In this document: positions 1,764 through 52,208 of the stretch, one piece after another
How the letters are laid out: the number at the start of each line of letters is the position of its first letter
Numbering within the stretch: position 1 is the stretch's first letter
Origin: Micromonospora sp. ALFpr18c
GTDB taxonomy: Bacteria > Actinomycetota > Actinomycetes > Mycobacteriales > Micromonosporaceae
Length of the DNA stretch: 62,390 bases
Reading direction: 5' to 3'
NCBI RefSeq assembly: GCF_008868155.1
Contig: NZ_WBKR01000011.1
Coordinates: 1 to 62,390 of the forward strand
Translations under genes and position numbers: made by a program
Notes under the pieces: generated by a model
What the model was told of the DNA's origin: nothing
The model's input: the letters and a program-made list of their open reading frames with translations, nothing else
The model's database searches: none

Positions 1764-4700
1764 GTGACTGGGGTGGTTACTGCTGTGCTTGCTGCCGAGG
1801 ATGTGAAGGCTGCTCGACGCGGTCTGCCGCCGCTGCCGGAACCCGGTCAGGTGGTCGAGGTTCGCGGCTCGACGTGGGCTGTGTCCAACGTTCAGGTGCA
1901 GGGTCTTCCGCGTAGCCCGGCCGACGAGTCGGTAGCGCAACTGAGCCACGTCGTCGACCTGCTTTCCCTCGATGAAGGCAGCCTGGGCGCGCAGCTCAGC
2001 GTGGTATGGGAACTCGAAGTCGGCCACTCTGTTGCCCCAGCGCAGGGCCTCCCGGACGTGATTCAAGTCGACGGTTTTGACGATCCGGAGACGCTGGCTG
2101 GCTTCATCGATGCGATGCGGTGGGGAGCCGTCACGAGCGCCGACCCCAACCGCTATCAGGCTCCGTTCTGGTCTGGGGTGAACGTAGAGGCGTATCAGCT
2201 CGAACCGCTCCGCCGGGCTCTTGGGGCACCGCGCGCGAACCTGTTGCTGGCCGACGACGTCGGCCTGGGTAAGACGATCGAGGCAGGGCTGGTAATCCAG
2301 GAGTTGTTCCTGCGTCACCGTGCCCGCACCGCGATCATCGTGTGTCCGCCGAGTCTGTCGCTGAAGTGGCAGGACGAGATGCGGGAAAAGTTTGGCCTGG
2401 AGTTCACTATCGTCAACTCCGAGCTGATGGCTGAGGTCCGTCGTACCCACGGTCTACAGGCCAACCCGTTCCGGATCTTCCGGCGGGTGATCGTGAGCAT
2501 GGCCTGGTTGCCGCAGGTCCGGGCCCAGCGCCTCCTGCGCGACATCTACGCGCAGGCCACGAACGCCAAGACCGGCAGCCGGTACGCCTTCGACATCCTC
2601 GTCGTTGACGAAGCGCACCATGTGGCGCCAGCGAGTCCCTCGATGGTGAACGGCGGGCGCGGGTACGCGGTGGACACCCAGCGCACGATCGCCGCGCGGC
2701 AGCTCGCGGAGAAGTGCGAGCATCGTCTGTTCCTGAGTGCGACACCGCACAACGGGCACCCCGAGTCGTTCACGGCGCTGATGGAGATGATCGACCGCCG
2801 ACGCTTCGCCCGTGGCGCGAACCTCGACCCCACCGCGCTCAAGGACGTGACGGTCCGACGGCTGAAGGCGGACCTGACCGGTAAGGGGTTCAAGAAGCGC
2901 CAGGTCGGGACGATCGAGTTCGACCCGTCGGAGTCCGAGCAGCGGATGTTCTCGCTGCTGGACGAGATCGTCACCAAGAGCGCACGTTTGAACGGCACCA
3001 AGCCCGGCGGCGACATCGTGACGATGCTGCTGAAGAAACGGTTCTTGTCCAGCCCGTTCGCCTTCGGCATGACCCTAAGCCACTACCTGTCATCGAGGGC
3101 TGGCCGCGGACTGTCTGACGACGAGTACGACGACATCTTCGGCGAGGGCCAGTCCGACGAGGAAGAGGGCTTGTGGGAGCAGGACGAGGCGGAGAGACTA
3201 CGCGAGTCGAAGGTTTCCGACCCGCTCGTCGGAGCTGATCCTGGCCAGCTAGAGACCCTGATGAACTGGGGTCTGGGCTATGAGAGCCGCGCTGACTCCC
3301 GTGTCGATCGGCTTACCGGCTTCCTCGACGCGAACTGCCGTCCCGACGGCAAGCGCTGGACCAACGAACGCGTCGTCGTCTTCACCGAGTACGCGCACAC
3401 CGTCGACTGGCTCACCCGCGTGCTGCGCCAGCGCGGCTACAGCGACGACCGGCTCGCGGTGATCCAGGGCTCAACCCCGCCGGATCAGCGTGAGTACATC
3501 CGTTCCCAGTTCACCGCTGATCCGTCAAAGGAGCCGGTGCGCGTGCTGCTCGCCACCGATGCCGCCGGTGAGGGAATCGACCTGCAGACCTACTGCCACC
3601 GACTGGTCAACTTCGACATCCCGTTCAACCCGTCCCGGCTCGAACAGCGCATCGGCCGCATCGACCGGTACGGCCAGACCGAAAAACCGAAGGTGTTCCA
3701 CTTCCTGCCCGTGCGGGGTTCCTCCACATACGGCGCTGACTTGAAGTTCATGCAGATCATCGCCCGTAAGATCGCACAGGTCGAGTACGACCTCGGCTCA
3801 GCCAACCAGGTCGTCGGTGACGAGATCCAGGGCCACTTCGGGCGCCCCACACGTACGACGAAGAAGTCCAGGGGCATCGACCCCAACGAGGTCATCAACG
3901 CAGCCTTGGCCGGCGGCATGGAACTCAATGCCCGCCTCACCCAGCTGGAGCAGGGCTACGCGTACCAGCGCACCGAGATGCACCTCGAGCCGGCCAACTT
4001 ACGCCGCGTGGTCGGCGCTGCGCTACGGCTCAACCACCAGGAAGCCCTGGTCCCGAACCATGAGTTCGCCCAGGACACCGACGCCGAGGTATTCACCGTG
4101 CCGACCCTCACAGCAGGCTGGCGAGACAGCCTCCGCGGCCTCGACACCCGCCTCGATCCCGGTGTACTGCGGCCCATCACCTTCGACCCGGAGGCTGCCG
4201 AAGGGAGAGCCGACCTGGTATACGTCCACCTTGGCCATCCGATTGTGCAGAAGGCTCAAAGGCTGCTGCGCCGGTCGTTGTGGAGCGTTGATTCGACTCT
4301 TCGGCGTGTGACGGCAGTGGTTGTAGACGGCCTTGATGAATCGTTCGTCGCCGCCGTGACCCGCATGGTTCTAGTCGGCCGCGGCGGCGTCCGGCTGCAC
4401 GAAGAGGTCTTCCTGGCCGGCGTCCGGCTGCGCGGACGCCGCGCAATGGCCGAGGATCGGGCAGAGGAGGCACTCGATAAGGCGCTGGACCGGGAGAACC
4501 TCACTCTGGCTGATCAACGGGTCCGCGACCAGCTGTGCAACCTGTGGAACGTGGCTGACGCCCCGCTGCGCCTGCGACTCGAAGAATCGATGCGCACCCG
4601 CGCCGGCCGTCGACACGACCTGGTCACCGAGCAACTCGCCCGGAGGCAGGCCGCAGACGTGCAGCGGGCGACGGAGATTTTCGCCGCTTTCCGTGCCAAT

Positions 4701-4955
4701 CTCCGCGACTCGCTCACCCGCCTTCGTGCCGAGGAAGACGCAACCGCTGGGCAACTGTTCACCGACCCGGACCAGCAGCGGCAGTGGCGGCGCGACATCG
4801 AGGCCATGTCCCGCCGCTTGGACGAACTCGATGACGAGCAGGCGCGTGAAGTCGCCGCCATCAACGACCGGTATGCCGAGGTCAAGCCGCACACGACCGC
4901 AGCCGCCGTCGTGTTCGCCCTGACCCGGGACGACGCAGATGGGTGGCAAGAGTGA
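1764..4955 (+). CDS. drmD: DISARM class 1 SNF2-like helicase DrmD
   Basis: 1063 residues, the first gene of a class 1 DISARM operon, which restricts incoming phage DNA. Superfamily 2 motifs are in order: Walker A LLADDVGLGKT (about residues 161-171), DEAH box VVDEAHH (about 280-286), motif III SATPHNG (325-331), and in the second RecA domain ATDAAGEGIDLQ and QRIGRIDRYGQ (about 595-650). The N-terminal 150 residues precede the helicase core and the C-terminal 350 are charged and helical, as in SNF2/HepA-like members. The start is GTG at 1764, because the ATG at 1750 runs into a stop. The stop overlaps the next gene in a TGATG arrangement, indicating translational coupling. Assignment rests on the motifs plus the perfect operon context. 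Confidence 0.9.
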   Translation: MTGVVTAVLAAEDVKAARRGLPPLPEPGQVVEVRGSTWAVSNVQVQGLPRSPADESVAQLSHVVDLLSLDEGSLGAQLSVVWELEVGHSVAPAQGLPDVIQVDGFDDPETLAGFIDAMRWGAVTSADPNRYQAPFWSGVNVEAYQLEPLRRALGAPRANLLLADDVGLGKTIEAGLVIQELFLRHRARTAIIVCPPSLSLKWQDEMREKFGLEFTIVNSELMAEVRRTHGLQANPFRIFRRVIVSMAWLPQVRAQRLLRDIYAQATNAKTGSRYAFDILVVDEAHHVAPASPSMVNGGRGYAVDTQRTIAARQLAEKCEHRLFLSATPHNGHPESFTALMEMIDRRRFARGANLDPTALKDVTVRRLKADLTGKGFKKRQVGTIEFDPSESEQRMFSLLDEIVTKSARLNGTKPGGDIVTMLLKKRFLSSPFAFGMTLSHYLSSRAGRGLSDDEYDDIFGEGQSDEEEGLWEQDEAERLRESKVSDPLVGADPGQLETLMNWGLGYESRADSRVDRLTGFLDANCRPDGKRWTNERVVVFTEYAHTVDWLTRVLRQRGYSDDRLAVIQGSTPPDQREYIRSQFTADPSKEPVRVLLATDAAGEGIDLQTYCHRLVNFDIPFNPSRLEQRIGRIDRYGQTEKPKVFHFLPVRGSSTYGADLKFMQIIARKIAQVEYDLGSANQVVGDEIQGHFGRPTRTTKKSRGIDPNEVINAALAGGMELNARLTQLEQGYAYQRTEMHLEPANLRRVVGAALRLNHQEALVPNHEFAQDTDAEVFTVPTLTAGWRDSLRGLDTRLDPGVLRPITFDPEAAEGRADLVYVHLGHPIVQKAQRLLRRSLWSVDSTLRRVTAVVVDGLDESFVAAVTRMVLVGRGGVRLHEEVFLAGVRLRGRRAMAEDRAEEALDKALDRENLTLADQRVRDQLCNLWNVADAPLRLRLEESMRTRAGRRHDLVTEQLARRQAADVQRATEIFAAFRANLRDSLTRLRAEEDATAGQLFTDPDQQRQWRRDIEAMSRRLDELDDEQAREVAAINDRYAEVKPHTTAAAVVFALTRDDADGWQE

Positions 4956-7900
4956 TGGTGCGCCGCTACAACACCCGACGCTCCACCCCCAGCGTTGCAG
5001 ACCAGCACCGCGCCTGGCTGGAGCTGGTCGACACTGACGGCCCGTTTCTCGCCGTTGCGCCGCTCAAGCGCGTGTGGCCCCAGGGCATGCCCACGCTGTC
5101 CGACGCCCGGAAGGCCGCGTTGGTCGACGCCCGCAAGGATTTCGAGGCCGCGTGGGAGCGTCTCGACCGTGCACCGGACTCTGAGCAGGCCCTGGACACC
5201 TACCGCCTCGTGCGCGACAAGTGGGTCGAGACGATCCTTCGCGACGCCGCGGGCTGGGCAGAATCGCTGTCGTGGGGCGAAGTGCCAGGCGTGGAGGCGC
5301 ACTCACCCAATCGGGCCGTCACTGTCCGCGCGCAGGCGTCGCTCAACGGCCCCGAAGGGGTCGGCGCGCTAGTTCACGTCGTCGATCCCGTCGAATCGCT
5401 GCGCGAGACCCTCGGCGACCTCTGGGCGGCCAATCCGATCGACCGCGTCGAGGTGATGCTGCGCGAGAACCGTATTCCCATCGGCATCGTCACGGACGGC
5501 CGCTGGTGGGGGCTCGTCTGCGCCCGGCAGGGAGCGATGCTCGCCTCTGGCCTCGTGGATGCGCTGACCTGGATCGAAGAACCGCGAACACGGGATGCGT
5601 TCCTCACCCTGATCGGCCGGCCGTACCTGATTGCTGGGGAGCCGAAGGACCGCCTTCCCGTGCTGTTCGAGGAGTCGGTTGCCGCAGCCGAGGAGATCAC
5701 CGAGGCCCTGGGCGCCCAGGTACGGCGAGCGGTTGAACTGATCATCCAGTCCTTGTCCGAGTCGGCCGCCGACGCTCGACGACGCAGCCTTCCAGACCCG
5801 CTGTCGGCGCGCCCGCGCGACAGCTACGAGGCCGCCGTCACGGTGATGATGCGCGTCGTCTTCCTCCTGTTTGCCGAGGAGCGCGGTCTGCTGCCCTCTG
5901 GCGAACTGTTCGACCAGGGCTACGGCATCGCTCGCGAGCTTGATCAGCTCATCGCGCGCAGGACCGAGGAGAGCGAGGAGGCCCTCGACTCCACCTCGTT
6001 GACCTGGCACCGGCTTCTTGCGACCAGCAACGCCCTCTACCACGGCGCATCCTTTGAGAACATCCGTATGCCCGCCTACGGCGGCTCCCTGTTCGACCCG
6101 TCCCGGTTCCCGTTCCTCACCGCCGTGGCCGACCAGGGCTCCCTGGCCGTCACGGTTTCGGACCGTGTCATGCTTCACGTCCTGCAGTCCGTGCAGATCG
6201 CCGACATCAAAGGCGAAGCGCGGCGAATCTCGTTTCGCGACATAGATGTCGAGCAGATCGGCTACATGTACGAGGGACTGCTCGGCTACACCGTCGCCGT
6301 TGCCCACGAGGTCACCGTCGGCATCAAGGGCAGTCTGGGCGAAGAGCCCGAGATCCCGCTCGCCACGCTCGATGGGCTGGCTGCAAAGAATCCCGACCGT
6401 AAGAAGTTCGCCGATGCCCTCCGCGCCTGGGTGGAGCAGGATCAGCCCTCTGCCAAGCCACCGTCACGAGCTGCCATCGCCAAAGCCGTTGACGCCGACA
6501 TCGACCCGAGCATCGTCAGCGCGCTTACCCAAGCCGTTGGCGACGACGTCGCCCTACGCGACCGCGTCAAGCCATGGCTCGGGCTGATCCGCCTCGACCT
6601 GCGCAAGCGGCCGATCGTCGTCCTCGACGGCGGCCTGCTCGTCAGAGAAACTCCATCCCGGAAGAACGCTGGCGCCCACTACACCCCGAAGTCCCTCGCC
6701 GAACAGGTCGTGCTCCACGCTCTCCAACCGCTCTGCTACGCGCCCGGCCCGCACCAGACAGCCGATTCGGCGACGTGGAAGCTCAAGTCGTCCAACGAGA
6801 TCCTCGGCCTCAAAATCGCCGACATCGCCTGCGGCTCCGGGGCGTTCCTCGTCGCCGCCGCCCGCTACCTAGCCGAGCGCGTCGTCGAAGCCTGGACTAT
6901 CGAGGACCGCGCGAACGCAGGCCGCAAAGACCTCTACACCCTCGCGATCCGCCAGGTCATCGCGAAATGCCTTTACGGCGCCGACATCAACGACATGGCC
7001 ATCGAGATGTGCAAACTCTCGCTATGGCTCGTATCTCTCGACCGTAACCTGCCGTTCTCGTTCGTCGATGACAAGGTCTTCCTCGGCAACTCCCTGCTCG
7101 GTCTCACTGGGATCGAGCAACTTCGAAACCTGCACATCGATCCGCGCAAGGGAACCAAGTGGGTCACCAAGAGGCTGTCCTCCGGCACCGACCTTACGTA
7201 CGTCGTTGACGTTGACGTCGACTCGATCATCGCCAAGGCTGTCGCCCTCCGCGAGAACCTTGCGTCACCAGTCGACGACGCTGACCCCGCTCGCTCCAGC
7301 GCCGCGAAGCGCCGTCTGCACACGCAGTTGCGCGAGGTGACGGCAGACTTGCGGAAGATCGCAAACGGTGTCATCGCCGCGGGCCTGCCTTTCGGCGGCA
7401 AGCCCGGCAAGACTCTGAACGCCGCGTATGACGACTTGCGCATGGCTGCCAGGAAGGCATATCCGGGCACGGCTGGCGGTGGCTCCGACAGTGCGCGGCT
7501 CGAAGCAATCATCGACCGAGGCCTCACACCCGCCGTCGAGACTGACTACAAGCGTTGGCAACCACTTCACTGGATCATCGAGGCCGCCGACGTCATGGTC
7601 GGCCACGGCGGCTTCGATGCCATCATCGGCAACCCACCGTTCCTTGGCGGACAAAAGCTCACCGGCGCCATGGGCACGCCGGTCCGCGACTGGTTCGTCA
7701 ACATCCTCTCCGAGGGCCGCCGAGGCAGCGCCGACCTCGTCGCCTACTTCCTCCTACGTGTCACCTCGCTCTTGCAGGCGAAGGGCACCCTCGGTCTGAT
7801 CGCCACGAACACGGTCGCCCAGGGCGACTCCCGCGAAGTCGGCCTCGACGCCATGGTGGCCGCCGGCTTCACCATCACCCGCGCCATACAGTCCCGGTCC

Positions 7901-9037
7901 TGGCCGGCGGCAAGCGCCAACCTCGAATACGCCGCCGTCTGGGGCACACTCGGTTCAGTCGCCGATGCGGTCCCGCGCGTGGCCGACGACGTGCCAGTCG
8001 GCCGCATCAGCACCCTGCTCGAACCGCAAGGCCGTACCGCGGGCAATCCGATCCGCTTGATCGAGAACACCGGCATCGCCTTCCAGGGCTGCATCGTGCT
8101 CGGGATGGGCTTCGTGCTCGACTTGGCTGAAGCGCAAGAGTGGATTGCCACCGATCCACGCAACGCCGAGGTGCTCTTCCCATACCTCAACGGCGAAGAC
8201 CTCAACTCCCGCCCAGACGCCTCAGCGTCACGCTGGGTAATCGACTTCAACGACCGCACCGAAGCCGAAAGCGCGATGTACCGGCTGCCATATGCGAGGT
8301 TGCTGGAGCAGGTCAAGCCCGAGCGGTCAGGCAAACCGAAAGCCGTGCGAGAAGCTCCATGGTGGCTTTTCCTGCGTACGCGGCCAGCCATGCGCAGGGC
8401 GATCGCCGAGTTGCCTGAGGTGTTGGTCATCGCTCTTGTCAGCAAGACCGTCATGCCCGTTCGCGTCGCGAACGTGCAGGTCTTCAGCCACAAGCTAGGT
8501 GTCTTTGCTACGGACTCGTATGCGGATCAAGCAGTGCTGTCGTCGACGGTTCACCAGCTTTGGGTCGTCAAGTACACGTCAACGATGCGGGCGGACATCA
8601 ACTACTCTCCGTCGGACGTGTTTGAGACCTTTCCTCGCCCGCCCTTTGCTGATCGTCTTCAAGCTGCAGGGCGTTCTCTCGACGAGGAGCGCCGGGAGGT
8701 CATGCTTCGACGCGGGCTCGGTCTCACCAAGCTCTACAACCTGGTAAACGACGCTGAACTAAGCGACGATTCCGACCGGGATGTTGCTCGGATACGAGCA
8801 CTGCATGTGCATCTTGACCATGAAGTCTTGGATGCGTATGGCTGGTCTGACATCACGCCTGGCCACGGATTTCATACATTTAGGAAGATGCAGCGATGGA
8901 CCGTGAACCCGGCGGCGCGGATCGAGATCCTAGACCGACTTCTCGACGAGAATCGTCGCCGCGCCGAACGACAGGCACAGGTTTTTGGGGGCGCCACCTT
9001 GGAGACCGGTGAACCCGACGACGAAACGCTCTTCTGA
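4955..9037 (+). CDS. drmMI: DISARM class 1 adenine-specific DNA methyltransferase DrmMI, expressed allele
   Basis: 1360 residues from the coupled ATG at 4955; a GTG at 4943 is an alternative start. DrmMI is expected to methylate host DNA as the self mark of DISARM. Visible features: FLLFAEERGLLPSGELF in the N-terminal half, GAHYTPKSLAEQVV (about 572), SAM motif I ADIACGSGAF (about 622-631) and the N6-adenine motif NPPF (about 892-895). This is a PglX/Eco57I-like gamma-class layout with the target recognition domain at the C-terminus. Residues 948-1103 are encoded by a 467-bp segment repeated in inverted orientation at 9831-10297. Residues 1104-1360 are therefore exchangeable for the 256-residue alternative in the silent cassette. 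It ends at 9037, only 22 bp from the end of the oppositely oriented cassette. Confidence 0.92.
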   Translation: MVRRYNTRRSTPSVADQHRAWLELVDTDGPFLAVAPLKRVWPQGMPTLSDARKAALVDARKDFEAAWERLDRAPDSEQALDTYRLVRDKWVETILRDAAGWAESLSWGEVPGVEAHSPNRAVTVRAQASLNGPEGVGALVHVVDPVESLRETLGDLWAANPIDRVEVMLRENRIPIGIVTDGRWWGLVCARQGAMLASGLVDALTWIEEPRTRDAFLTLIGRPYLIAGEPKDRLPVLFEESVAAAEEITEALGAQVRRAVELIIQSLSESAADARRRSLPDPLSARPRDSYEAAVTVMMRVVFLLFAEERGLLPSGELFDQGYGIARELDQLIARRTEESEEALDSTSLTWHRLLATSNALYHGASFENIRMPAYGGSLFDPSRFPFLTAVADQGSLAVTVSDRVMLHVLQSVQIADIKGEARRISFRDIDVEQIGYMYEGLLGYTVAVAHEVTVGIKGSLGEEPEIPLATLDGLAAKNPDRKKFADALRAWVEQDQPSAKPPSRAAIAKAVDADIDPSIVSALTQAVGDDVALRDRVKPWLGLIRLDLRKRPIVVLDGGLLVRETPSRKNAGAHYTPKSLAEQVVLHALQPLCYAPGPHQTADSATWKLKSSNEILGLKIADIACGSGAFLVAAARYLAERVVEAWTIEDRANAGRKDLYTLAIRQVIAKCLYGADINDMAIEMCKLSLWLVSLDRNLPFSFVDDKVFLGNSLLGLTGIEQLRNLHIDPRKGTKWVTKRLSSGTDLTYVVDVDVDSIIAKAVALRENLASPVDDADPARSSAAKRRLHTQLREVTADLRKIANGVIAAGLPFGGKPGKTLNAAYDDLRMAARKAYPGTAGGGSDSARLEAIIDRGLTPAVETDYKRWQPLHWIIEAADVMVGHGGFDAIIGNPPFLGGQKLTGAMGTPVRDWFVNILSEGRRGSADLVAYFLLRVTSLLQAKGTLGLIATNTVAQGDSREVGLDAMVAAGFTITRAIQSRSWPAASANLEYAAVWGTLGSVADAVPRVADDVPVGRISTLLEPQGRTAGNPIRLIENTGIAFQGCIVLGMGFVLDLAEAQEWIATDPRNAEVLFPYLNGEDLNSRPDASASRWVIDFNDRTEAESAMYRLPYARLLEQVKPERSGKPKAVREAPWWLFLRTRPAMRRAIAELPEVLVIALVSKTVMPVRVANVQVFSHKLGVFATDSYADQAVLSSTVHQLWVVKYTSTMRADINYSPSDVFETFPRPPFADRLQAAGRSLDEERREVMLRRGLGLTKLYNLVNDAELSDDSDRDVARIRALHVHLDHEVLDAYGWSDITPGHGFHTFRKMQRWTVNPAARIEILDRLLDENRRRAERQAQVFGGATLETGEPDDETLF
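7797..8263 (+). repeat. Left arm of 467-bp perfect inverted repeat (inside drmMI)
   Basis: Base-by-base comparison with the reverse complement of 9831-10297 shows no mismatch over 467 bp, including synonymous positions. Weaker similarity continues to about 7783 (GCACCCTCGG in both copies). The arm ends after a GAA codon in the same reading frame in both copies, so exchange keeps the protein in frame. Confidence 0.95.
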
Positions 9038-9059
9038 CCGCTCCAGGCGGGGTCTCAGC

Positions 9060-10298
9060 TCAGTCGAAGAGGGTGTATTCGTCGAGCGGCACGGCACCGC
9101 TTCCTGCGGAGCTTCGACCACTGGGCTGAGCCCCCGCACGGCGATGATTCTCCAGCAACAGGCGGTCGAGGATCTCGACGCGGGCGGCTGGGCTGATCGT
9201 CCAGCGAATGACTTGCCGGTACGCATCGAAGCCGTGGTCCAGGCGAACGTCGTCCCACCCATACGCGGCCACGGTTGCTTCGTCGACCTCGACGTGAAGA
9301 TCACGCAACCGGTCCACGTCCTTGTCTCGCTGGATCCCGGGGTCGTGGGCGAGGTTGTACAGCTTCGTCAGGCCGAGGCCGCGCCGGAGCATGATTTCGC
9401 GCCGCTCGTCGTTTAGTAAACGCCCGGCAGCGTCAAGCCGGTCAGTTGCGGCGGGTAGGGGGAAGGTCTCGAACACGTCCGACGGCGTATAGCGAACCCG
9501 CGTCTCCAGGGTCGAGCCGTAGGTGATCGCCCATATCTGGTGCAGGTTTGATGACAAGAGTGCCTGGAGGCTATATCCATCGGAGGCGAACACGACCACT
9601 TGCTCACTCGGCACCTGTCCTGCCGGCACGCGCAGTGGCATGACGGTCTTGCTGACACGCGCGATGACCAACACCTCAGGCAACCCCGCGATCGCCCTCC
9701 GCAGCGCCGGCCGCTTCTCCGCGAACTGCCACCAGTAGTCGCGGTAGACCTTTCGATTGTTCAGCGTGCGCTCTGGCTTGACGTGGTCTTTCGCCCACGC
9801 GTATGGCGCGGGGTATCCGGCCGCTGCTGGTTCGGTGCGGTCGTTGAAGTCGATTACCCAGCGTGACGCTGAGGCGTCTGGGCGGGAGTTGAGGTCTTCG
9901 CCGTTGAGGTATGGGAAGAGCACCTCGGCGTTGCGTGGATCGGTGGCAATCCACTCTTGCGCTTCAGCCAAGTCGAGCACGAAGCCCATCCCGAGCACGA
10001 TGCAGCCCTGGAAGGCGATGCCGGTGTTCTCGATCAAGCGGATCGGATTGCCCGCGGTACGGCCTTGCGGTTCGAGCAGGGTGCTGATGCGGCCGACTGG
10101 CACGTCGTCGGCCACGCGCGGGACCGCATCGGCGACTGAACCGAGTGTGCCCCAGACGGCGGCGTATTCGAGGTTGGCGCTTGCCGCCGGCCAGGACCGG
10201 GACTGTATGGCGCGGGTGATGGTGAAGCCGGCGGCCACCATGGCGTCGAGGCCGACTTCGCGGGAGTCGCCCTGGGCGACCGTGTTCGTGGCGATCAC
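9060..10298 (-). pseudogene. Silent alternative target-recognition cassette of DrmMI
   Basis: Reading on the minus strand there are 412 open codons with no proper start. The first 156 codons match DrmMI residues 948-1103 exactly. After that the sequence diverges but keeps conserved islands: LPEVLVIARVSKTVMPLR, SDVFETFPLP, ERREIMLRRGLGLTKLYNL and ARVEILDRLL, and it ends ..DEYTLFD against ..DDETLF in the expressed copy. It therefore encodes a different member of the same recognition domain. The putative GTG at 10298 lies inside the homologous region, so this is best read as a stored donor segment, not an independent gene. A few codons of further homology (GRTLGV) upstream suggest it came from a longer methyltransferase copy. 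Confidence 0.88.
9831..10297 (-). repeat. Right arm of 467-bp perfect inverted repeat
   Basis: Reverse complement of 7797-8263 without a mismatch. The outer boundary is at 10297/10298, where CTGATC in the left copy becomes GTGATC in the right; the inner boundary is at 9831. The recombinase start codon follows 46 bp outside. Confidence 0.95.
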
Positions 10299-10343
10299 GC
10301 CGAGGGTGCGTCCGCCTCTTAAGCGCGAGGTTGCACTCCTCTA

Positions 10344-11669
10344 ATGGATGTGTCTCTGATGACGTGTATGAATCTGAACCAGGCGCGCCGCTGCGTCCTT
10401 TACGCTCGCCTCAGTGTCACCAAGGAAGAGTCCGTTTCGATCACTCGGCAACTCCAGTCCTGCCGCAGGTATGCGGAGGCGCGCGGATGGGAGATCGTCG
10501 GTGAGTTCATCGACGACGGCGTCTCCGCGACCGCTAACCGGCCCGAAGACCGCAAGGGTTGGTGCTCGCTTCTCCGGGCCGCCGAGTTTGACGCCGTGAT
10601 CATCTGGAAGGTGGACCGGCTCGCACGGCGCGTCCTCGACTTCCTCCACGCCGACGAGACCCTGCAGATGCGGGGCGCGGGCCTTGTAGCGGTCGAGGAC
10701 CCGATAGACATGACCAGCCCGCAGGGCCGCGCGTTCGCGGTCATGCTGGCCGTGTTCGGCGAAATGGAGGCTGAGGCAATCAGGGCACGCGTCCGTGCAG
10801 CCCGGGTGCAACTGCTTAAGGACGGCCGCTGGCCAGGCGGCGGCATCCCGTACGGCTATCGATCGATCGCGAATCCGGCCGGCCCAGGCCGCGTACTGGT
10901 CAAGGACCCCGAGCGTGCCCGCTGGCTCACAGAGGCGGTCGCGATGGCGCTGGAGGGCACCACCGTCAACGCGATCGCCACGTGGCTGAGCGACAACGGC
11001 GCGCCGCTTCCTAGTCGGCAGAGCGAAAAGAAGGCCGCCGTCACCTGGAACCGTCAGACTGTCGATGGTCTGCTTCGCAACCCGGTCCTAGCTGGGATGA
11101 CACCCCATAACCCGGGCAGGGCGAAGAGCGCCAAGCGCGTGGACCCGTTCGCGGTGGTCCGTGACGAGCACGGCCGGCCGGTCATCAACGAGTCGTTGGC
11201 CGTGATCAACGGTGAGGTCTTCGCGGTGCTGCAGCACATGCTCGACTCGCGCACCAGCCCGCAGGCCCGCAAGCGAAGCGACCGGCAGGCGACGAGCCCG
11301 TTCCTGTCGCGTGTCGCGCGCTGCGACGACTGCGACGCGTACATGTGCCGCGGGACGAACCAGAAGCGCCCCATTCTCTATTGCCCGACGTGCAGGCAGA
11401 CCATTGGCCGGGCAGCCCTCGACCCCTATCTCGTCGGACGCCTCGTGGCGGAGCGCGGCAGCGAGCTGCTCGGCGACGCGACCGTCGAGCAGAGTTGGGC
11501 CGTTGCCGGCGCTGACGAGGTAGCCCGGCGAGCTGTGCTTCTCACCCAATTGGACAGCCTGCGAATCCGTCGCGGCGTCGTGGGGCGCTCCTTCGACGAC
11601 GAGCGCGTCCTGGTCCAATGGAGACTCTCAGACTCCGGCCAGCAGGGCGATCTTCTCGCGGCGGCGTAG
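10344..11669 (+). CDS. Large-type serine recombinase, probable invertase of the DISARM cassette
   Basis: 441 residues. The resolvase/invertase catalytic domain starts with LYARLS, giving a nucleophile near Ser24, followed by the arginine helix VDRLARRV and the E-helix FGEMEAEAIRARVRAARVQ. A Recombinase domain (GGGIPYGYR, then TVNAIATWLSDNGAPLPS) and a zinc ribbon (CDDCDAYMCRG..YCPTC) follow. This is the large serine recombinase architecture, at the short end of its size range. Starts at 10344, 10359 and 10368 are all possible; no strong ribosome site discriminates. It sits between the right inverted-repeat arm and drmA on the same strand as the DISARM genes, which suggests a dedicated cassette switch. 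It could instead be an old integrase of the island, but no matching att sites were recognised. Confidence 0.88.
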   Translation: MDVSLMTCMNLNQARRCVLYARLSVTKEESVSITRQLQSCRRYAEARGWEIVGEFIDDGVSATANRPEDRKGWCSLLRAAEFDAVIIWKVDRLARRVLDFLHADETLQMRGAGLVAVEDPIDMTSPQGRAFAVMLAVFGEMEAEAIRARVRAARVQLLKDGRWPGGGIPYGYRSIANPAGPGRVLVKDPERARWLTEAVAMALEGTTVNAIATWLSDNGAPLPSRQSEKKAAVTWNRQTVDGLLRNPVLAGMTPHNPGRAKSAKRVDPFAVVRDEHGRPVINESLAVINGEVFAVLQHMLDSRTSPQARKRSDRQATSPFLSRVARCDDCDAYMCRGTNQKRPILYCPTCRQTIGRAALDPYLVGRLVAERGSELLGDATVEQSWAVAGADEVARRAVLLTQLDSLRIRRGVVGRSFDDERVLVQWRLSDSGQQGDLLAAA

Positions 11670-11747: not shown

Positions 11748-11816
11748 ACCGGGGTGGCTTATCGCTCACGGCGGGTGACGCTCGCAATGTTGGTTATGTG
11801 CGGCAGACTGTGGCGC

Positions 11817-14800
11817 ATGGCGGACGGCACTGAGGCGACGGCACCTCCAAACGGCGGGTATGTGCTCAACCACGAGGCTGATGGCACGTCGTTCACGGTT
11901 CGGGAGAACCTCGTTGACATTTTGGAGCGGGAGTTGCTCGGGCCGATCAACGGACCCGAGGAGCTGCTGCCGTTCAGCCCACGCCAGCAGTATCTTCTCG
12001 GCCTAATCGCGCCAGTCAAGCTCACGAGCGCATCCCCGTCGGGGCTCGATCAACGTGACGCGAACGACCTACCCGAGATTCCGCTCGACGAGAGGCATAC
12101 AGAGGGGCGTGGTGTGCCGGCGGTGCCCGCCGACGATGGCGATGCGGACACCGAGGATGACGATGCGGAGGACCGTGCGCCGAAGCAGGGGCTGATGATC
12201 CCGGCGTCGATGGGGCTGCGGTTCCAGGTGCCAACTGACCTGGTGTCGTTCACGGTGACAGCGTCGTGGGGAACATACGAGACGGTCGAAACCGAGAAGG
12301 TCAACAAGGCCGGGCGCCCTGTGCGTCAGTACCAGCGCACCCCGGTCGAGGAGTCGCGGACAGTCGCGCTGCGAGATTTAAAGCCGGGGCATACGGCGAC
12401 GATCGTGCTGCGCGGCGCGATCTGTCTGCGTATCGACCGATATGACGATCCCGAGTACCAGCGCGTGCTCGTCGAGATCGCGCTGTGCAATGACCGCGAG
12501 ACCCCGTTGCCGATCCCGTCGAACATGTGGATGTTCCAGACCCAGCTACGAGTCGACGCCAGCGGGGCCGAGGTGTTCCTGCCCGTGCGTGATGTCCTAG
12601 AGCAGGAATGGCCGGAGTACGACGACGAGGTGCGTCGCCTCGACCTTCAGTACAAGGACCGGCTGGAGTTCGCGATCGGGCGCACCTGTTCGGCCGACTG
12701 GGTCGTGCGCCCTGGGTCGCGGCGGGCGACGGAGGTGTCGACAGCGTGGTTGCCGGTGGCGGAGACCCCGCAGACGAAGGCAGGCGAAGTTGAGGGCGCA
12801 ACTTTGTCGATGAAGGCGCTGTCCGTGGCCGGTCCCGACGAGGTCCAGGCAGGTCTGGTACCGCTCGTGTCTGGGTACGGCACCTGGCTCGACCGGCAAG
12901 AAGCGGCGGCGAAGACGCTGCCGACGCATCTGCAGGAGACCGCCGAGCTGGTGCTATGGGAGGCGCGGCAGGCGCATCAGCGTCTGGTCGAGGGGCTGGA
13001 GTTCGTAGCGTCCGACCCGGCTGCGCTGCAGTGCTTCCGGTTCATGAATCGGGTCATGCGCGATCAGCGGCTCGCCTCGCAGGTGGTCGAGGCGCGCAAG
13101 TCCGACTCGACTCTATCGATCGCGCTGGCGCGCCAAAATCTCGAACTCGCAGAGGCAGACGGCAAGCCGGTGGCGTCGTGGCGGCCATTTCAGCTCGCGT
13201 TCATCCTCATGCAGCTACGTGCGCTGATCGACCCGTCCGCGACTCTGCGCAGCGGCGAGCACCAGGCCAAAGTTGAGTTGCTGTTTTTCCCGACCGGTGG
13301 TGGTAAGACCGAGGCGTACCTGGGTCTGGCCGCGTACACCTTCGCGATCCGACGGCGGCAGGGGGTGGTCGCCTCCGCGGACGGGTCGCTCAACGGCGAT
13401 GACGGTGTCTCAGTCCTGATGCGGTACACGCTGCGGCTGCTCACCGCGCAGCAATTTCAGCGCGCGACCGCGCTGGTATGCGCGGCGGAACTGGTGCGCC
13501 GCGAGGACGAGGTGACGTGGGGGACCGAGCCGTTCCGCATCGGGCTGTGGGTCGGCACGGATGTGAGCCCGAAGCGGTTCGAGGAGGCCGACGAGCAGCT
13601 CAAGAAGGTTAACGACGGTGCCTCTCACCGGCTGACCGTGCTGCAGATCCAGCGCTGCCCATGGTGCGGCACCGAGATCACCCCGGCGAACGTCAAAGGC
13701 GATCCCACGTCGCGGCGGGTGTTCGTGCACTGCGGCGACGAGCTCGCCCGGTGCCCGTTCTCAAGAGGCGGTGGCGTGCCCGAGGGTCTGCCGATCCTGA
13801 CGGTTGACGAGGAGATCTACCGGCTGACCCCAGCGTTCGTGATCGCTACCGTCGACAAGTTCGCCCGACTGGCTCGCGAGGGTGAGGCGGCGTCGCTGTT
13901 CGGGTTTGTCGCCAAGCGTTGCGGCCGGCACGGTTACGTGCACCCCGACTACACCGGCTGCACGGTCAGCTTCCACCAGACCGCCGGAGTGCATCGCGCG
14001 GCGACCGTGGTGCCCGTCGGGCGGCTGCGGCCACCGGACCTGATCATCCAGGACGAGCTGCACCTAATCACGGGAGCGCTCGGCACAGCGATCGGGCTCT
14101 TCGAGGTCGCTGTCGAGACGTTGTGCTCGTGGCAGACCCCGGACGGCCAGCCGGTAAGGCCGCTGATCGTTGCATCCACGGCGACCGTCCGCAATGCCGG
14201 CGAGCAGGTGCGGGCACTCTACGGGCGCAAGGTCGAGATCTTCCCACCGCAGGTGCTCGACGTGGCGCACACCTTTTTCTCCCGCGAGGTGTCGGTCTCG
14301 ACCAAAAATCCCGGCCGCCGCTACGTCGGGGTCAGTGCCCAGGGCGTGCGCCTATCCAGCGCGGAGATCCGCGTCGCCGAGGTGCTGCTGCTGGCAGGAC
14401 AGCTACTCTTCGACCGCACGGGCATCGAGGCTGACCCCTACATGACGCTAATTGGTTACTTCAACGCCACCCGGGAGTTAGCGGGTATGCGCCGATATGT
14501 AGATGACGACGTGAGCGCGAGGGTAGGCAACCCACGACAGGACTCGGGCTTTCCGCGCCGATACGGCACCGCGTTCGGCAGCCTCAACGTAGCCGAACTT
14601 ACCGCGCGCATCTCCGGGGCGGACATCGGTAAGACTCTCGACCGGCTCGGCCTAGAGTTCGACCCGGGCCACGACACGACCGGCGCGTTCCGGGCCCGTA
14701 TCGCCGCGGCAAAGGAGAACAAGAAGCCGCCATCGCGCGACGGCGAGGCGCCGTTCGACGTGGTCCTGGCCACCTCAATGCTGCAAGTCGGGGTGGACAT

Positions 14801-15527
14801 TCAACGCCTCGGCCTGATGCTCGTCGTCGGCCAGCCGAAAAACACCGCCGAGTACATCCAGGCATCCTCCCGTGTCGGCCGCGACGCCGAACGCCCCGGA
14901 CTGGTGGTGGCGTTGGGAAACTGGGCCAGGCCCCGCGACCTGGCGCATTTCGAACAGTTCCGCCACTACCACGAGACCTTCTACAAGCAGGTCGAGGCGT
15001 TGTCGGTCACCCCCTTCTCGCCCACCGCTCTGGAGCGTGGCCTCGACGGCCTGCTCGTCAGCGCGGTCCGCGTCGCCCAAGCCGTCGTCGCCGACGGGCT
15101 CTCGCCCGAACAGCAGGCGGGCCGCGTCGGCTTCCAACATGACGCCGTGGCCGCGTTGATCAACCGGCTCAAAGCCCGCATCCTGGCTGCCTCGCAGGAC
15201 GAAGACCTGACAAGACGGGCCAGCGATCTGCTCACCAACCGCGTTGACCGGTGGGCCAGCCGAGCTAGATACGCCACTGAACTGCATAAGACCCTCGTCT
15301 ACGAGCGCACCGGCGAAGGCGACAAGTGCCTACCGCTGATCATCAGCCCTGAGAACCACCGCGCCAACGTTGGCAGCAAGGCCGAAGCGCCGTTCGTGAT
15401 CGCGAACTCGATGCGCGAGGTGCAACCCGAGATCAACATTCTCGTCTCGCCGATACCGGAGCGGCTGTTCGCCCGAACCCCTCCAGGCGTCGACAACTGG
15501 ACACTGCCCGCCGGGGAGAACGACTGA
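11817..15527 (+). CDS. drmA: DISARM helicase DrmA
   Basis: 1236 residues from the ATG at 11817; an in-frame GTG at 11754 is a longer alternative, but its first residues look non-conserved. Walker A is LLFFPTGGGKTEAYLG (about residues 486-501). The DEXH box reads QDELHLITGALGTA (about 744) and motif III ASTATVRNA. Motifs V/VI are LQVGVDIQRLGLML and YIQASSRVGRDAERPG (about 1010-1025), followed by FEQFRHYHETFYKQVEALSVTPF. These segments are hallmarks of DrmA, one of the three core DISARM proteins (DrmA, DrmB, DrmC). DrmA forms a complex with DrmB that blocks invading DNA. The stop overlaps the drmB ATG as TGATG. Confidence 0.93.
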   Translation: MADGTEATAPPNGGYVLNHEADGTSFTVRENLVDILERELLGPINGPEELLPFSPRQQYLLGLIAPVKLTSASPSGLDQRDANDLPEIPLDERHTEGRGVPAVPADDGDADTEDDDAEDRAPKQGLMIPASMGLRFQVPTDLVSFTVTASWGTYETVETEKVNKAGRPVRQYQRTPVEESRTVALRDLKPGHTATIVLRGAICLRIDRYDDPEYQRVLVEIALCNDRETPLPIPSNMWMFQTQLRVDASGAEVFLPVRDVLEQEWPEYDDEVRRLDLQYKDRLEFAIGRTCSADWVVRPGSRRATEVSTAWLPVAETPQTKAGEVEGATLSMKALSVAGPDEVQAGLVPLVSGYGTWLDRQEAAAKTLPTHLQETAELVLWEARQAHQRLVEGLEFVASDPAALQCFRFMNRVMRDQRLASQVVEARKSDSTLSIALARQNLELAEADGKPVASWRPFQLAFILMQLRALIDPSATLRSGEHQAKVELLFFPTGGGKTEAYLGLAAYTFAIRRRQGVVASADGSLNGDDGVSVLMRYTLRLLTAQQFQRATALVCAAELVRREDEVTWGTEPFRIGLWVGTDVSPKRFEEADEQLKKVNDGASHRLTVLQIQRCPWCGTEITPANVKGDPTSRRVFVHCGDELARCPFSRGGGVPEGLPILTVDEEIYRLTPAFVIATVDKFARLAREGEAASLFGFVAKRCGRHGYVHPDYTGCTVSFHQTAGVHRAATVVPVGRLRPPDLIIQDELHLITGALGTAIGLFEVAVETLCSWQTPDGQPVRPLIVASTATVRNAGEQVRALYGRKVEIFPPQVLDVAHTFFSREVSVSTKNPGRRYVGVSAQGVRLSSAEIRVAEVLLLAGQLLFDRTGIEADPYMTLIGYFNATRELAGMRRYVDDDVSARVGNPRQDSGFPRRYGTAFGSLNVAELTARISGADIGKTLDRLGLEFDPGHDTTGAFRARIAAAKENKKPPSRDGEAPFDVVLATSMLQVGVDIQRLGLMLVVGQPKNTAEYIQASSRVGRDAERPGLVVALGNWARPRDLAHFEQFRHYHETFYKQVEALSVTPFSPTALERGLDGLLVSAVRVAQAVVADGLSPEQQAGRVGFQHDAVAALINRLKARILAASQDEDLTRRASDLLTNRVDRWASRARYATELHKTLVYERTGEGDKCLPLIISPENHRANVGSKAEAPFVIANSMREVQPEINILVSPIPERLFARTPPGVDNWTLPAGEND

Positions 15528-17557
15528 TGACCGACACCGTCGCAGAGGTGCTTCCCGATTACAACGACGCTCTCGACCCACTCGGCGACGTGGAGGCGGG
15601 CCAGGCCAAGAACCGCGCCAAGGTCGGCTCCGCTCGCCCCTCGTCGCTGCTCTACACCTATGGCCCGGGGGCGATTATGGACCTGCCCAACTTCTCGGTC
15701 ATGCCCGCAGGCCTCGATGACTGGGAGCCGATCTGGAAGCGCCGCGAGGTCGTACCAACGATTCTCGAACCGCGCCTGCTCAACGTGGTACGCCTGCACC
15801 TCGGCCCGCAGGTCGACGCCCTTCGGCCGTTCCCGTGGCAGCCGAAGAAGGGCGTCCTGTCGAACGAAGGCTCGGACCTCGGCCTGCCGGCAAGGGTGTT
15901 CCCCCAGTGGTTCCGGTGCACCGGATGTGACTACCTGGGTCCGCTCACCCGATTCACCTACACCAACACCCATCCGTTCCGGCCAGACCTGGCGCAGTTC
16001 GCCCACAAACCGTGCCCAGGCCGCGGCGGGAGGGGCAGGCGCGCGGGTAGCCCCGCCGTGGCCGCACAGCACCTACTTACCTGCACGAACGGCCACCTCG
16101 ACGAGTTCCCCTACACACTCTGGGTTCACCGTGGGGCAACCTGTCCGAATGCGGAATCGCCCGAGCTGAAGATGCGCGATGCGAACGTCGGGAGAAGCGT
16201 CGGGTCGACGATCATCTGCCAGGCATGCGGAACGACCCGCGGGATGGCGGAGGCGCAGGGATCGAAGGGCCGGGAAAAACTCCCGCAGACCTGCCGCGGT
16301 CGCCACCCACACCTGGGCGCGTTCTACCCCGGATGTCGGGCCCGCCCGGCGCTGATCATGATGGGCGCGTCCAACCTCTGGTTCACCTCGACGCAGAGCA
16401 TCATCATCATGCCGCGCTCCGACGCCGAGAAGAAGGAAGCCCTCGGCGACCAGTTGCGCGTCGAGGTCGGCATCGACCAGATCAAGCAATTCGGCGAACA
16501 GGTCCCAGTCATCCGCGCCCTCGCGGCCGCACGAAACATCGACGTCACCGGACTCACCGACGCTGATATCGCCACCGCCGTCGCCGAAGTCCTCGCACCA
16601 CCCGAGTCCGACGAAGCCCGCGAAGAACGCCAGGCGAACTGGGACCCGATCGAGCTGCTCATACCTGAGTGGCGCTACCTGCAGAAGCCGGCACTGTTCC
16701 CAGAACAGCAGAACAACACCGGGCTCATGGTCACCGAGATGCAGCGCGGGCCCGACCTGCACCGATATGTCGCTCGCGTGGTAGGTGTCAACCGGATGAA
16801 GCGCGTCAACGCCGTCCTCGGCTTCACCCGCTTGGACGAGATGGATCGCGTTAACGACGTCGCTTCACGCCTGGTCACCCTCACCCGCACCGCGAAGCCG
16901 ACCTGGGTACCCGCCACCGAGGACCGCGGCGAGGGCATCTTCCTTCAACTCGACCTCGACGCCGTCGCCAAGTGGGAGAAGACGGTTGAGGGCAGTGCAC
17001 TGTGGGAGGCACACCGGAAGGCACACCGGCGCAACTTCGCCCGACGCTTCTCCGAGACCGCCAAAATCCTCGATCCCGACACCCGCCTGCCCGGACCGCG
17101 CTACTGGCTGGTCCACACATTCGCCCACGTCCTCATCCGCGAGATGGCGATGTACTCCGGATACGGTGCCGCGAGCCTCACCGAGCGCATCTACGCCTGG
17201 AACGACGCGTCACAGCGTGAGTCCGCTGCCGGGCTGCTCATCTGTACCACCGCCTCCGACAGCGAAGGCACCCTCGGCGGGCTCGTTGCACTGGCCGAAC
17301 CCGCCCGCTTACAGACCATCGTGCGAACCGCGCTGCGCCGGGCCACGCGCTGCTCCTCCGATCCGATCTGCGCCATGCGCACGCCGACGGACCCGGAGGA
17401 CTTTCTGCATGGCGCCGCCTGCCACACCTGCAGCTTCGCCTCAGAAACCTCCTGCGAGAAGGCGAACCGGTTCCTCGACCGGCGGTTCCTGCTCGATCTT
17501 CCCACCGCAGACGGCCCGACCGTGCCGGGATTTTTCGGTAGCTCCCATGGCATCTGA
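15527..17557 (+). CDS. drmB: DISARM protein DrmB (DUF1998)
   Basis: 676 residues. The DUF1998 region near residue 525 has YWLVHTFAHVLIREMAMYSG followed by ASLTERIYAW. Cysteine pairs RCTGCDY (about 130), a middle ICQACG and a terminal CHTCSFASETSCEKAN (about 632) suggest zinc binding. DrmB is the obligate partner of DrmA in DISARM. It is translationally coupled to drmA (TGATG) and its 3' end overlaps drmC by 11 bp, so the core trio is one transcription and translation unit. Confidence 0.93.
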   Translation: MTDTVAEVLPDYNDALDPLGDVEAGQAKNRAKVGSARPSSLLYTYGPGAIMDLPNFSVMPAGLDDWEPIWKRREVVPTILEPRLLNVVRLHLGPQVDALRPFPWQPKKGVLSNEGSDLGLPARVFPQWFRCTGCDYLGPLTRFTYTNTHPFRPDLAQFAHKPCPGRGGRGRRAGSPAVAAQHLLTCTNGHLDEFPYTLWVHRGATCPNAESPELKMRDANVGRSVGSTIICQACGTTRGMAEAQGSKGREKLPQTCRGRHPHLGAFYPGCRARPALIMMGASNLWFTSTQSIIIMPRSDAEKKEALGDQLRVEVGIDQIKQFGEQVPVIRALAAARNIDVTGLTDADIATAVAEVLAPPESDEAREERQANWDPIELLIPEWRYLQKPALFPEQQNNTGLMVTEMQRGPDLHRYVARVVGVNRMKRVNAVLGFTRLDEMDRVNDVASRLVTLTRTAKPTWVPATEDRGEGIFLQLDLDAVAKWEKTVEGSALWEAHRKAHRRNFARRFSETAKILDPDTRLPGPRYWLVHTFAHVLIREMAMYSGYGAASLTERIYAWNDASQRESAAGLLICTTASDSEGTLGGLVALAEPARLQTIVRTALRRATRCSSDPICAMRTPTDPEDFLHGAACHTCSFASETSCEKANRFLDRRFLLDLPTADGPTVPGFFGSSHGI

Positions 17558-18335
17558 CCCCTTCGCCGAACTGGGCAGCTTCCTCACCGCCACCGAAGCA
17601 CAGCGACTCGCCGTCCAGTTCAAGATCGGGCAGCACACGATCGCCGCGCTGACCGAGGTCGCCGCAGCGCGAAGGGAGACCGTCAAGCGGCTCCTCGTGG
17701 CAGCGGCGCTCGGGCACACCGACAGCGAGCGGACCGTGGGCGTGTTGCGCGCCATCGCGGGGGCGAAGTCCGTTCTGCGAGAACTGACTCCCGTCTGGAC
17801 GATGCCCGGCAACGAAGCCACCGTCGGACACCTCACCAGCGAGTTCCACCGTATCGCGCGAGCCGCCCGGCAATCTGTCACTGCAGCGACCTACAACTTC
17901 CAGGACTCATCGCAGATGCGGTCCGTGCTCAAGGAGGCATCCGAACAGCCTGGCGTCGTCGTCACCGTCTACGTCGACGGGAACGTCGCCGACGCCGCTA
18001 GGGTGAAGGCCCAGCTCCCACGCGCCACCGTCTACCGCTCCACCGAACTGCCCAACGGCAACCACGTGCGCAGCCACGCCAAGTTCATCGTGATCGACCA
18101 TGAACTACTCCTGCTGACCAGCGCCAACTTCAGCTACTCCGCCGAGAACGTGAACGTTGAGTTCGGCGTCCTGATCCGCGACTCTGCACTCGCCGAGTCC
18201 ATCGAGGCCACCATGACGAGCAAGCACGGGTCGCTGTACGAGTTGGTTAGCCGCGCACCCGGTGAGACTGTGCCCCATCGGCCCCTGATCCCGGATGCCC
18301 GCCAAAGCGGTTCAGGCCCAGCCCGGCTGCTCTGA
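17547..18335 (+). CDS. drmC: DISARM phospholipase-D-like protein DrmC
   Basis: 262 residues from the ATG at 17547 inside the end of drmB. A longer reading frame upstream is only a shadow of drmB. One HxKx4D motif is present, in VRSHAKFIVIDHELLLLTSA near residue 176, with SANFSYSAEN after it. This is a single PLD domain, so a catalytic site would need a dimer. DrmC is the third core gene, although published DISARM work found it less important for protection than DrmA and DrmB. It closes the operon. Confidence 0.92.
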   Translation: MASDPFAELGSFLTATEAQRLAVQFKIGQHTIAALTEVAAARRETVKRLLVAAALGHTDSERTVGVLRAIAGAKSVLRELTPVWTMPGNEATVGHLTSEFHRIARAARQSVTAATYNFQDSSQMRSVLKEASEQPGVVVTVYVDGNVADAARVKAQLPRATVYRSTELPNGNHVRSHAKFIVIDHELLLLTSANFSYSAENVNVEFGVLIRDSALAESIEATMTSKHGSLYELVSRAPGETVPHRPLIPDARQSGSGPARLL

Positions 18336-51500: not shown

Positions 51501-51797
51501 TTCCTGATCAGCCTCAAGGCCGGTGGCTTCGGCCTCAACCTCACCGAGGCCGACTACTGCCTGCTGCTCGACCCGTGGTGGAACCCGGCTGCGGAGAACC
51601 AGGCGGTCGACCGGACGCACCGCATCGGCCAGACCCGCAACGTCATGGTGTATCGGATGGTCGCCAAGGACACCATCGAGGAGAAGGTGATGGCGTTGCA
51701 GGCGCGTAAGGCGGAGCTGTTCAGCAGCGTCCTGGACGGCGGCGAGTTCGCTTCCGCGCAGTTCACCGCCGCCGACATCAAGAGCCTGCTGGAGTAG
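48532..51797 (+). pseudogene. SWIM zinc-finger/SNF2 helicase, interrupted by two frameshifts
   Basis: The GTG start overlaps pglW. Frame 1 (48532 to about 48733) encodes the N-terminus. At ACACCCGACGGC one C seems missing (a CCCC run would restore DTPDG). The next frame gives SCGCGQAGCAHL, a SWIM zinc finger, and continues to about 50940 with GGVLADDMGLGKTLQTLALI (Walker A), LILDEAQFVKNAQSQAHR (motif II) and AITGTPMENHLGELWAL. Just after, near GCGCCGGTTGCTG, a second shift leads to LLPRADRFTDYYRNPIEKER and the C-terminal RecA domain (QAVDRTHRIGQTRNVMVYRM). The whole would be about 1088 codons, a normal HepA/SNF2 protein. The net shift is zero. Either true decay or sequence error; all motifs are otherwise intact. 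Confidence 0.75.
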
Positions 51798-52005
51798 GCG
51801 GCGTCGGCTTCTCATGGGTCTCGACGGGACCCGTCAGATCGGGAAGCCCTCCGCTCTTGAGCCAGTCGGCGAACTGTCGCCGATTCTCCAGGTCGACGAC
51901 AGCCTTGAGGGCCGCGTCGACGGTGGCCCGTGTCGTCGCGGTGCCGAGGATCTGGCCGGCCTCGGCCAATAGCTTGTCATCCACATCAAGGACAGTCCGG
52001 CTCAT
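51778..52005 (-). CDS. VapB-like antitoxin without a visible toxin gene
   Basis: 75 residues. MSRTVLDVDDKLLAEAGQIL then GTATTRATVDAALKAVVDLE has the short ribbon-helix-helix start and 'TRATVxxAL' segment of VapB antitoxins. No VapC (PIN) toxin lies next to it: downstream on this strand is the antisense end of the helicase, and upstream is a non-coding region. Overlaps the helicase 3' end by 20 bp. It could act as an anti-addiction remnant or as a regulator of a distant toxin. Confidence 0.7.
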   Translation of the reverse strand: MSRTVLDVDDKLLAEAGQILGTATTRATVDAALKAVVDLENRRQFADWLKSGGLPDLTGPVETHEKPTPPTPAGS

Positions 52006-52170: not shown

Positions 52171-52208
52171 GCACCTGCGTCGTCACTTACTGTGGTAAAA
52201 ATCTAGGA

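What the first reader, a model, noticed from the sequence alone, without database searches (positions are those of the whole stretch)
7797..10297. DISARM methyltransferase with an invertible, alternative target-recognition domain
A 467-bp inverted repeat, perfect at every base I compared, lies within drmMI and again 1.57 kb downstream on the other strand. Each copy leads in the same frame into a different C-terminal recognition region (257 and 256 residues) that keeps scattered conserved islands. Inversion would give a full-length DrmMI with a new C-terminus and leave drmA-B-C untouched. Phase-variable type I specificity subunits and pglX alleles are known; I do not recall such a module described for class 1 DISARM. 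It would let a population hold two methylation marks and restriction specificities at once.
Basis: partly seen in the sequence, partly recalled or inferred. Interest (0 to 1): 0.93.

Follow-up and report, generated by a model that had tools for sequence, protein, structure and literature searches.

The report
DISARM methyltransferase with flippable recognition end
A bacterial phage-defence operon carries, beside a recombinase gene, a second and inverted copy of the DNA-reading end of its methyltransferase; flipping it is predicted to give the cell a different methylation mark for telling itself from phage, and related bacteria hold the two versions in either order.

Summary
Of 26 other loci with a recombinase at least 66% identical, 25 lie among DISARM genes. 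Active and silent arms share islands of identity at fixed points (S1, S2, S2.5, S3) whose DNA words are rare or missing in 19 recombinase-less drmMI loci. In 11 of 16 two-armed loci one arm carries Glu-Arg and the other Arg-Asp at the positions that in MmeI read base pair 6; Glu-Arg sits in the active slot in 4 and in the silent slot in 7, and cassette sequences follow this swap in 28 of 28 opposite-phase comparisons. So both orders exist among species. I conclude: a recombinase-driven specificity switch, likely inverting at S2 here, possibly shufflon-like in relatives. Inversion within one strain, recombinase activity and the methylated motifs are untested. New variant of a known kind (invertible hsdS, pglX).

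The parts
1764..4955 (+). drmD, SNF2-like helicase, marker of class 1 DISARM
   Evidence: NF038317 1219 bits, PADLOC DrmD 1262 bits
4943..9037 (+). drmMI, adenine methyltransferase gene in its present (active) form, 1364 codons; MmeI_TRD at residues 1056-1234
   Evidence: PADLOC DrmMI 1622 bits; Pfam Eco57I, MmeI_Mtase, MmeI_TRD
7797..8263 (+). left arm of the perfect inverted repeat, inside drmMI
   Evidence: 467 identical bases
9831..10297 (-). right arm of the perfect inverted repeat, inside the silent arm
   Evidence: 467 identical bases
9060..10298 (-). silent arm: alternative C-terminal half of DrmMI, 412 open codons, MmeI_TRD at residues 105-283
7766..7781 (+). site S1 of the active arm (core of a dyad, TCGC..GCGA); the partner in the silent arm is changed
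   Evidence: word found in recombinase-bearing loci and not in 19 recombinase-less ones
8132..8149 (+). site S2, active arm; proposed crossover site in this strain (inferred)
   Evidence: exact in both arms, no other copy in the genome at up to 2 mismatches
9945..9962 (-). site S2, silent arm
8426..8457 (+). site S2.5, active arm; differs from its partner at 2 of 32 bases
9637..9668 (-). site S2.5, silent arm
9548..9560 (-). site S3, silent arm; the active partner near 8525 is changed
8588..8602 (+). residues 1216-1220 of the active arm (Arg, Asp, Asn at the positions of MmeI 806, 808, 810)
9492..9506 (-). matching residues of the silent arm (Glu, Arg, Arg, as in MmeI)
10344..11669 (+). serine recombinase gene, 441 codons (a later start at 10368 is usual in relatives); proposed invertase
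   Evidence: Pfam Resolvase E 3.4e-32 and Recombinase E 1.6e-11; Ser24 invariant in 19 aligned relatives
11754..15527 (+). drmA helicase
   Evidence: NF038325 1363 bits
15527..17557 (+). drmB
   Evidence: NF038324 657 bits
17547..18335 (+). drmC, phospholipase D-like (first ATG of the domain-bearing part of a longer frame)
   Evidence: NF038319 149 bits, cut-off 133; start

Best explanation
This is a class 1 DISARM operon whose drmMI gene has a second, inverted copy of its C-terminal half followed by a serine recombinase gene, and the recombinase likely inverts the DNA between matching sites in the two arms so that DrmMI would exchange its target-recognition domain. Shown: the perfect arms, the intact silent frame, the recombinase and its conserved place, and relatives holding the same cassette classes in the opposite order. 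Inferred: that this recombinase does the inverting, and that the working site in this strain is S2 (8132-8149 / 9945-9962), the only one of four sites identical in both arms. Inferred from MmeI: the active arm (Arg-Asp) would read G:C and the silent arm (Glu-Arg) C:G at the base pair after the methylated adenine, besides other possible differences. A flipped cell would methylate and spare a different sequence, so a clone could hold two self marks. In relatives, sites between TRD segments could allow shuffling of segments, and one relative holds a frameshifted product that looks like an OFF state.
For: Perfect 467-bp arms and 1363-codon flipped product. Silent arm is a MmeI TRD. Adjacent serine recombinase. 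Among the 28 closest recombinase loci examined of 41 found, 25 lie among DISARM genes, 12 with drmD on the contig. 18 of 18 recombinase-less drmMI loci with a mapped C-terminus show one arm only within the roughly 1.5 kb of flank held. Site words with up to 2 mismatches: S1 15, S2 16, S2.5 14, S3 15 of 32 recombinase records, against 0, 0, 1, 0 of 19 without. Silent frame open to its expected end in 15 of 15 loci. Opposite Glu-Arg / Arg-Asp arms in 11 of 16 two-armed loci; Glu-Arg active in 4, silent in 7; crossed similarity larger in 28 of 28 opposite-phase pairs, straight larger in 27 of 27 same-phase pairs. MmeI Glu806-Arg808 reads C:G, Lys-Asp reads G:C (passages of PMC4833311).
Against: No inversion was observed within a strain. 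Site-specific inversion alone does not explain 467 identical bases, so homologous exchange acts too or instead. The window's silent S1 and active S3 are changed. 5 of 16 two-armed loci lack a Glu-Arg arm. The 3-residue classes lie inside the segment compared, so part of the 28 of 28 is built in. The recombinase-less controls come from one genus. The four sites are not the highest peaks of codon constraint in the gene. R-D, not the tested K-D, is the pair found here.
Confidence: 0.8

Rival explanations
1. The arms invert or exchange by homologous recombination alone, and the recombinase is a passenger or serves another end. The outcome, a specificity switch, would be the same.
For: The arms are long and perfect. 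A title in the library says that spnIII inversion in pneumococcus is independent of all known site-specific recombinases there (PMC6620402, listing only).
Against: The recombinase keeps its place between silent arm and drmA across families, and site words are kept at the DNA level where recombinase-less genes vary.
Confidence: 0.14
2. The silent arm is a store for slow, one-way gene conversion or a leftover of duplication, and orientation is in effect fixed in each strain.
For: Only one orientation per genome was seen; the window's S1 and S3 pairs are decayed.
Against: Silent frames stay open in 15 of 15 loci; both orders occur, also between the window and Phytohabitans suffuscus.
Confidence: 0.05
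3. The repeat is an assembly artefact.
For: The window comes from a draft of 581 contigs, and repeats are a usual source of misassembly.
Against: The two tails differ (59% identity over residues 1210-1340), and the layout recurs in 15 other two-armed loci, one in a 10-Mb record titled chromosome (L066).
Confidence: 0.01

Closest known systems
BREX pglX with a partial second copy and an integrase (Lactobacillus rhamnosus)
   Same: A methyltransferase that reads DNA in a phage-defence system, a partial second copy of it and a site-specific integrase between them (passages of PMC7513527); that the copy inverts in L. rhamnosus GG is recalled from the founding BREX paper, which is not held.
   Different: BREX, not DISARM; DrmMI scores 32 bits against a BREX-1 PglX cut-off of 500. 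Here the enzyme is a serine recombinase and the TRD is MmeI-type.
Inverting type I restriction systems (duplicated hsdS with inverted repeats)
   Same: Specificity switched by recombination between inverted repeats; about 6% of type I systems are said to have such loci (abstract and section headings of PMC7394358).
   Different: There a separate specificity subunit is switched; here the TRD is the C-terminal part of the methyltransferase itself, in DISARM.
MmeI, type IIL enzyme
   Same: TRD fold and the residues at positions 806, 808 and 810 of the silent arm.
   Different: MmeI is a stand-alone enzyme with engineered changes of specificity; here nature appears to hold both residue pairs in one locus.
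Domain movement in type I and type IIG enzymes of Helicobacter pylori
   Same: Recognition sequences move and methylomes change (PMC3077401, PMC3983042; listings and abstract starts only).
   Different: No dedicated recombinase beside an inverted silent arm is mentioned in what I saw.

Membership tests
Class 1 DISARM | drmA, drmB, drmC together with drmMI and drmD | tested here: met
MmeI-type target-recognition domain | Pfam MmeI_TRD above its cut-off and MmeI fold in both arms | tested here: met
Type IIL restriction enzyme (MmeI) | cleavage of DNA by the same protein | not tested
   no nuclease domain was looked for beyond the Pfam scan, which lists none
Serine recombinase | Resolvase plus Recombinase domains and an invariant serine in the N-terminal motif | tested here: met
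   Ser24 invariant in 19 of 19 aligned; that Ser24 is catalytic is recalled
Serine recombinase | recombination at the proposed sites | not testable with these tools
   needs a plasmid assay
BREX (PglX) | NCBIfam BREX-1 PglX above cut-off | tested here: not met
   31.9 bits against 500
Inverting type I hsdS | separate specificity subunit gene | tested here: not met
   TRD is fused to the methyltransferase
Shufflon (several invertible segments, one recombinase) | more than one working site pair giving shuffled segments | tested here: inconclusive
   several identical site pairs per locus in relatives, but a search for mosaic arms printed none

The most novel reading that the evidence does not exclude
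The module is a base-by-base specificity shufflon: a dedicated serine recombinase works at sites written into the coding sequence of the TRD, between segments that read different base pairs, so inversions exchange the reading of single positions of the methylated motif (the last cassette toggling base pair 6 between G:C and C:G), and off-register events switch the methyltransferase off.
Probability: 0.45. Interest if true: 0.92.

Novelty: new variant of a known kind. Interest (0 to 1): 0.83.

Why it matters
DISARM's choice between self and non-self would become a heritable coin toss rather than a fixed property: a clone could hold two methylation marks, so phage protected by growth in one state would be foreign to the other. 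The recurring Glu-Arg / Arg-Asp pair gives a sharp prediction, one base of the motif, that long reads and methylomes can test directly. Tools that call defence systems by gene content overlook the silent arm, and draft contigs often end at it (11 of 28 loci start within 500 nt upstream of the recombinase).

Tried and rejected
Codon-shuffle test: at S1, S2, S2.5 and S3 the z-scores are 5.9, 5.0, 6.5 and 4.0 in 14 recombinase-bearing genes and -0.4, -1.2, 2.1 and -0.4 in 14 without. But other parts of the gene reach 7.2 in the first group and 12.5 in the second, because related genes share codons, so I use it only as support. The group without recombinase is one genus, so part of the contrast may be ancestry.

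Mosaic test: no pair of arms differed by more than 0.25 in identity between the inner and the last segment, so natural reassortment at inner sites is not shown.

Shared core: four site copies of the window share CTCTTG; random sets of four coding segments shared some 6-mer in 39 of 20000 draws. The hexamer occurs five times in 7700-10420, each at a site. The segments were chosen after looking, and the changed partner copies (silent S1 and S2.5, active S3) lack it, so I do not name it the crossover.

MmeI residues 723-774 could not be aligned safely and are not used; only 805-810 are anchored. Hybrid joints (L059, L060, L080: S1 to S2.5; L066: S2 to S2.5) may be site-specific deletions, but deletion by short homology is not excluded. 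The recombinase model is too weak to use (mean pLDDT 57). Plasmids: 310 records match, every best place under 60% identity.

Dropped before counting: L097 (same as L060) and L095 (same as L061), 100% identical; L096 was replaced by the longer L099. still counted L095-L097 and the three non-DISARM loci L074, L076, L077 among its 32 records. L082-L094 (36% identity or less) were not examined for context. In one search only four candidates per genome were scored, so absence of a second arm there is limited; one search saw one arm only in 18 loci.

Literature. No title or abstract start listed described inversion in DISARM. The founding BREX and DISARM papers are not held; a mention there, in a preprint or in a subscription paper is possible.

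Full report
Observation. The window holds a complete class 1 DISARM operon: drmD 1764-4955, drmMI 4943-9037, drmA 11754-15527, drmB 15527-17557, drmC 17547-18335. Between drmMI and drmA lie a minus-strand frame of 412 codons (9060-10298) and a plus-strand gene of 441 codons (10344-11669). Active and silent tails are in the same frame; the joined product has 1363 codons and no internal stop.

The engine. The 441-codon gene has Resolvase and Recombinase domains. The protein database gave 776 relatives at E 0.001 or better, the 120 listed at 75-93% identity. A scan of one genome per species gave 41 loci; I examined the 28 closest, 48-93% identical. In 25 the recombinase lies among DISARM genes, with drmD on the contig in 12. 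The others are L074 (71% identical, a truncated gene among housekeeping genes) and L076 and L077 (50% and 48%, among other genes). An even draw from the class found it at E 1e-80 or better in 5 of 394 genomes, the own genome included and one of the five only 51% identical. In 150 other genomes of the genus, 17 hold 18 full-length drmMI matches at 41-65% identity; 18 mapped loci without the recombinase show one arm only, and in 100 relatives the best other recombinase match is 38% identical. Silent arm and recombinase thus go together.

Sites. DNA comparison of the two arms in 15 loci shows islands of identity parted by divergent stretches in most of them, weak in L059 and L080. They recur at S1 (about residue 942), S2 (1064), S2.5 (1160-1170) and S3 (1194-1206). 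With up to 2 mismatches, S1 is in 15, S2 in 16, S2.5 in 14 and S3 in 15 of 32 recombinase records, many of them contigs that end early, and in 0, 0, 1 and 0 of 19 records without. The most shared 15-mers of drmMI in recombinase loci are S2 words, in 12 of 23 loci with and 0 of 19 without. In the source genome the S2 word occurs twice at up to 2 mismatches, exact in both arms and inverted. The window's silent S1 and active S3 are changed and its S2.5 pair differs at 2 of 32 bases, so S2, inside the perfect repeat, is the likely working site. Some relatives begin the silent arm at S2 or S2.5 instead of S1 (L058, L060, L066, L071, L072, L073, L080). In L059 the active gene joins S1 to S2.5 out of frame and stops after about 1014 codons: it looks like an OFF product.

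Silent arms are kept. In 15 of 15 loci tested the silent frame is open to its expected end, and nine end in a TLFD-like tail. A copy that never met selection would decay.

What is switched. MmeI Glu806 and Arg808 read base pair 6 as C:G, the Lys-Asp pair reads G:C, and exchanging them changed TCCRAC to TCCRAG (passages of PMC4833311). These positions fall on DrmMI 1216 and 1218 between well-aligned anchors. The window's active arm has Arg-Asp, its silent arm Glu-Arg. Of 16 two-armed loci, 11 hold one arm of each class; L063, L065, L073, L080 and L099 hold two Asp-type arms. The prediction is that inversion toggles the base after the methylated adenine; Arg-Asp in place of the tested Lys-Asp is an inference. 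The arms differ elsewhere in the TRD too (66% and 48% identity in two inner segments), so further positions may change.

Both orders occur. Glu-Arg is in the active slot in L056, L060, L066 and L075 and in the silent slot in the window, L058, L059, L062, L071, L072 and L078. Over residues 1210-1340, active resembles silent more than active in 28 of 28 opposite-phase pairs, and same-slot cassettes resemble each other more in 27 of 27 same-phase pairs. The classes were named from three residues inside that segment, so part of this is built in, but the differences run over 130 residues (L071 and L075: crossed 0.85 and 0.78, straight 0.58 and 0.58). Against L066, in a record titled chromosome of Phytohabitans suffuscus, the window's silent arm is 0.75, 0.81 and 0.79 identical to the L066 active arm in three segments, the window's active arm only 0.65, 0.48 and 0.63. 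That is the swapped order.

Assembly. In 11 of 28 loci the contig starts within 500 nt upstream of the recombinase, and in eight of these the sequence left is the start of the arm, as expected if assemblers stop at the repeat or at a mixture of orientations.

Mechanism. Shown: two arms, an intact silent TRD, a neighbouring recombinase kept in place, site-like words, both orders among species. Inferred: cutting at the sites by this recombinase, inversion at S2 in this strain, a new motif, a changed self mark. Not shown: any event within a strain. Homologous exchange remains a rival for the crossover itself, since site-specific inversion alone would not make 467 bases identical; both may act.

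Known or new. Invertible hsdS loci and pglX with a partial copy are known. Ten library searches listed no description of such a module in DISARM, with the founding DISARM and BREX papers not held. The DISARM structure paper has no occurrence of the word recombinase (PMC9142583; passages seen). I rate it a new variant of a known kind.

Noticed in passing
window 44408-59638: A second defence cluster of BREX type 2 kind: PglW (1534 bits), a SNF2 helicase-like gene, two genes matching candidate system PDC-M55 and a PglX (1626 bits); no inverted repeat of 45 nt or more in 40000-62390.
   Followed up: partly
L059 5268-8310: Active drmMI joins S1 to S2.5 out of frame and stops early, while the silent arm is open: looks like an OFF state of the switch.
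   Followed up: partly
L072 4158-11119: The recombinase gene is split, its parts about 5.7 kb apart, as if something was inserted in it.
   Followed up: no
L079 1-465: In Micromonospora sp. NBRC 107566 (recombinase 93% identical) the sequence leaves the arm right within S1, as if something was inserted or rearranged at the site.
   Followed up: partly
L076, L077: Recombinases 48-50% identical lie outside DISARM, in L077 next to genes for a type IV pilus-like ATPase that seems interrupted; they may show the mobile-element origin of the DISARM recombinase.
   Followed up: no
paper PMC7365801 (text read): A Cutibacterium acnes strain with a DISARM-like locus gave a methylation motif with only 24.1% detection that its authors could not explain; a mixture of two DrmMI states is an untested thought.
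   Followed up: no
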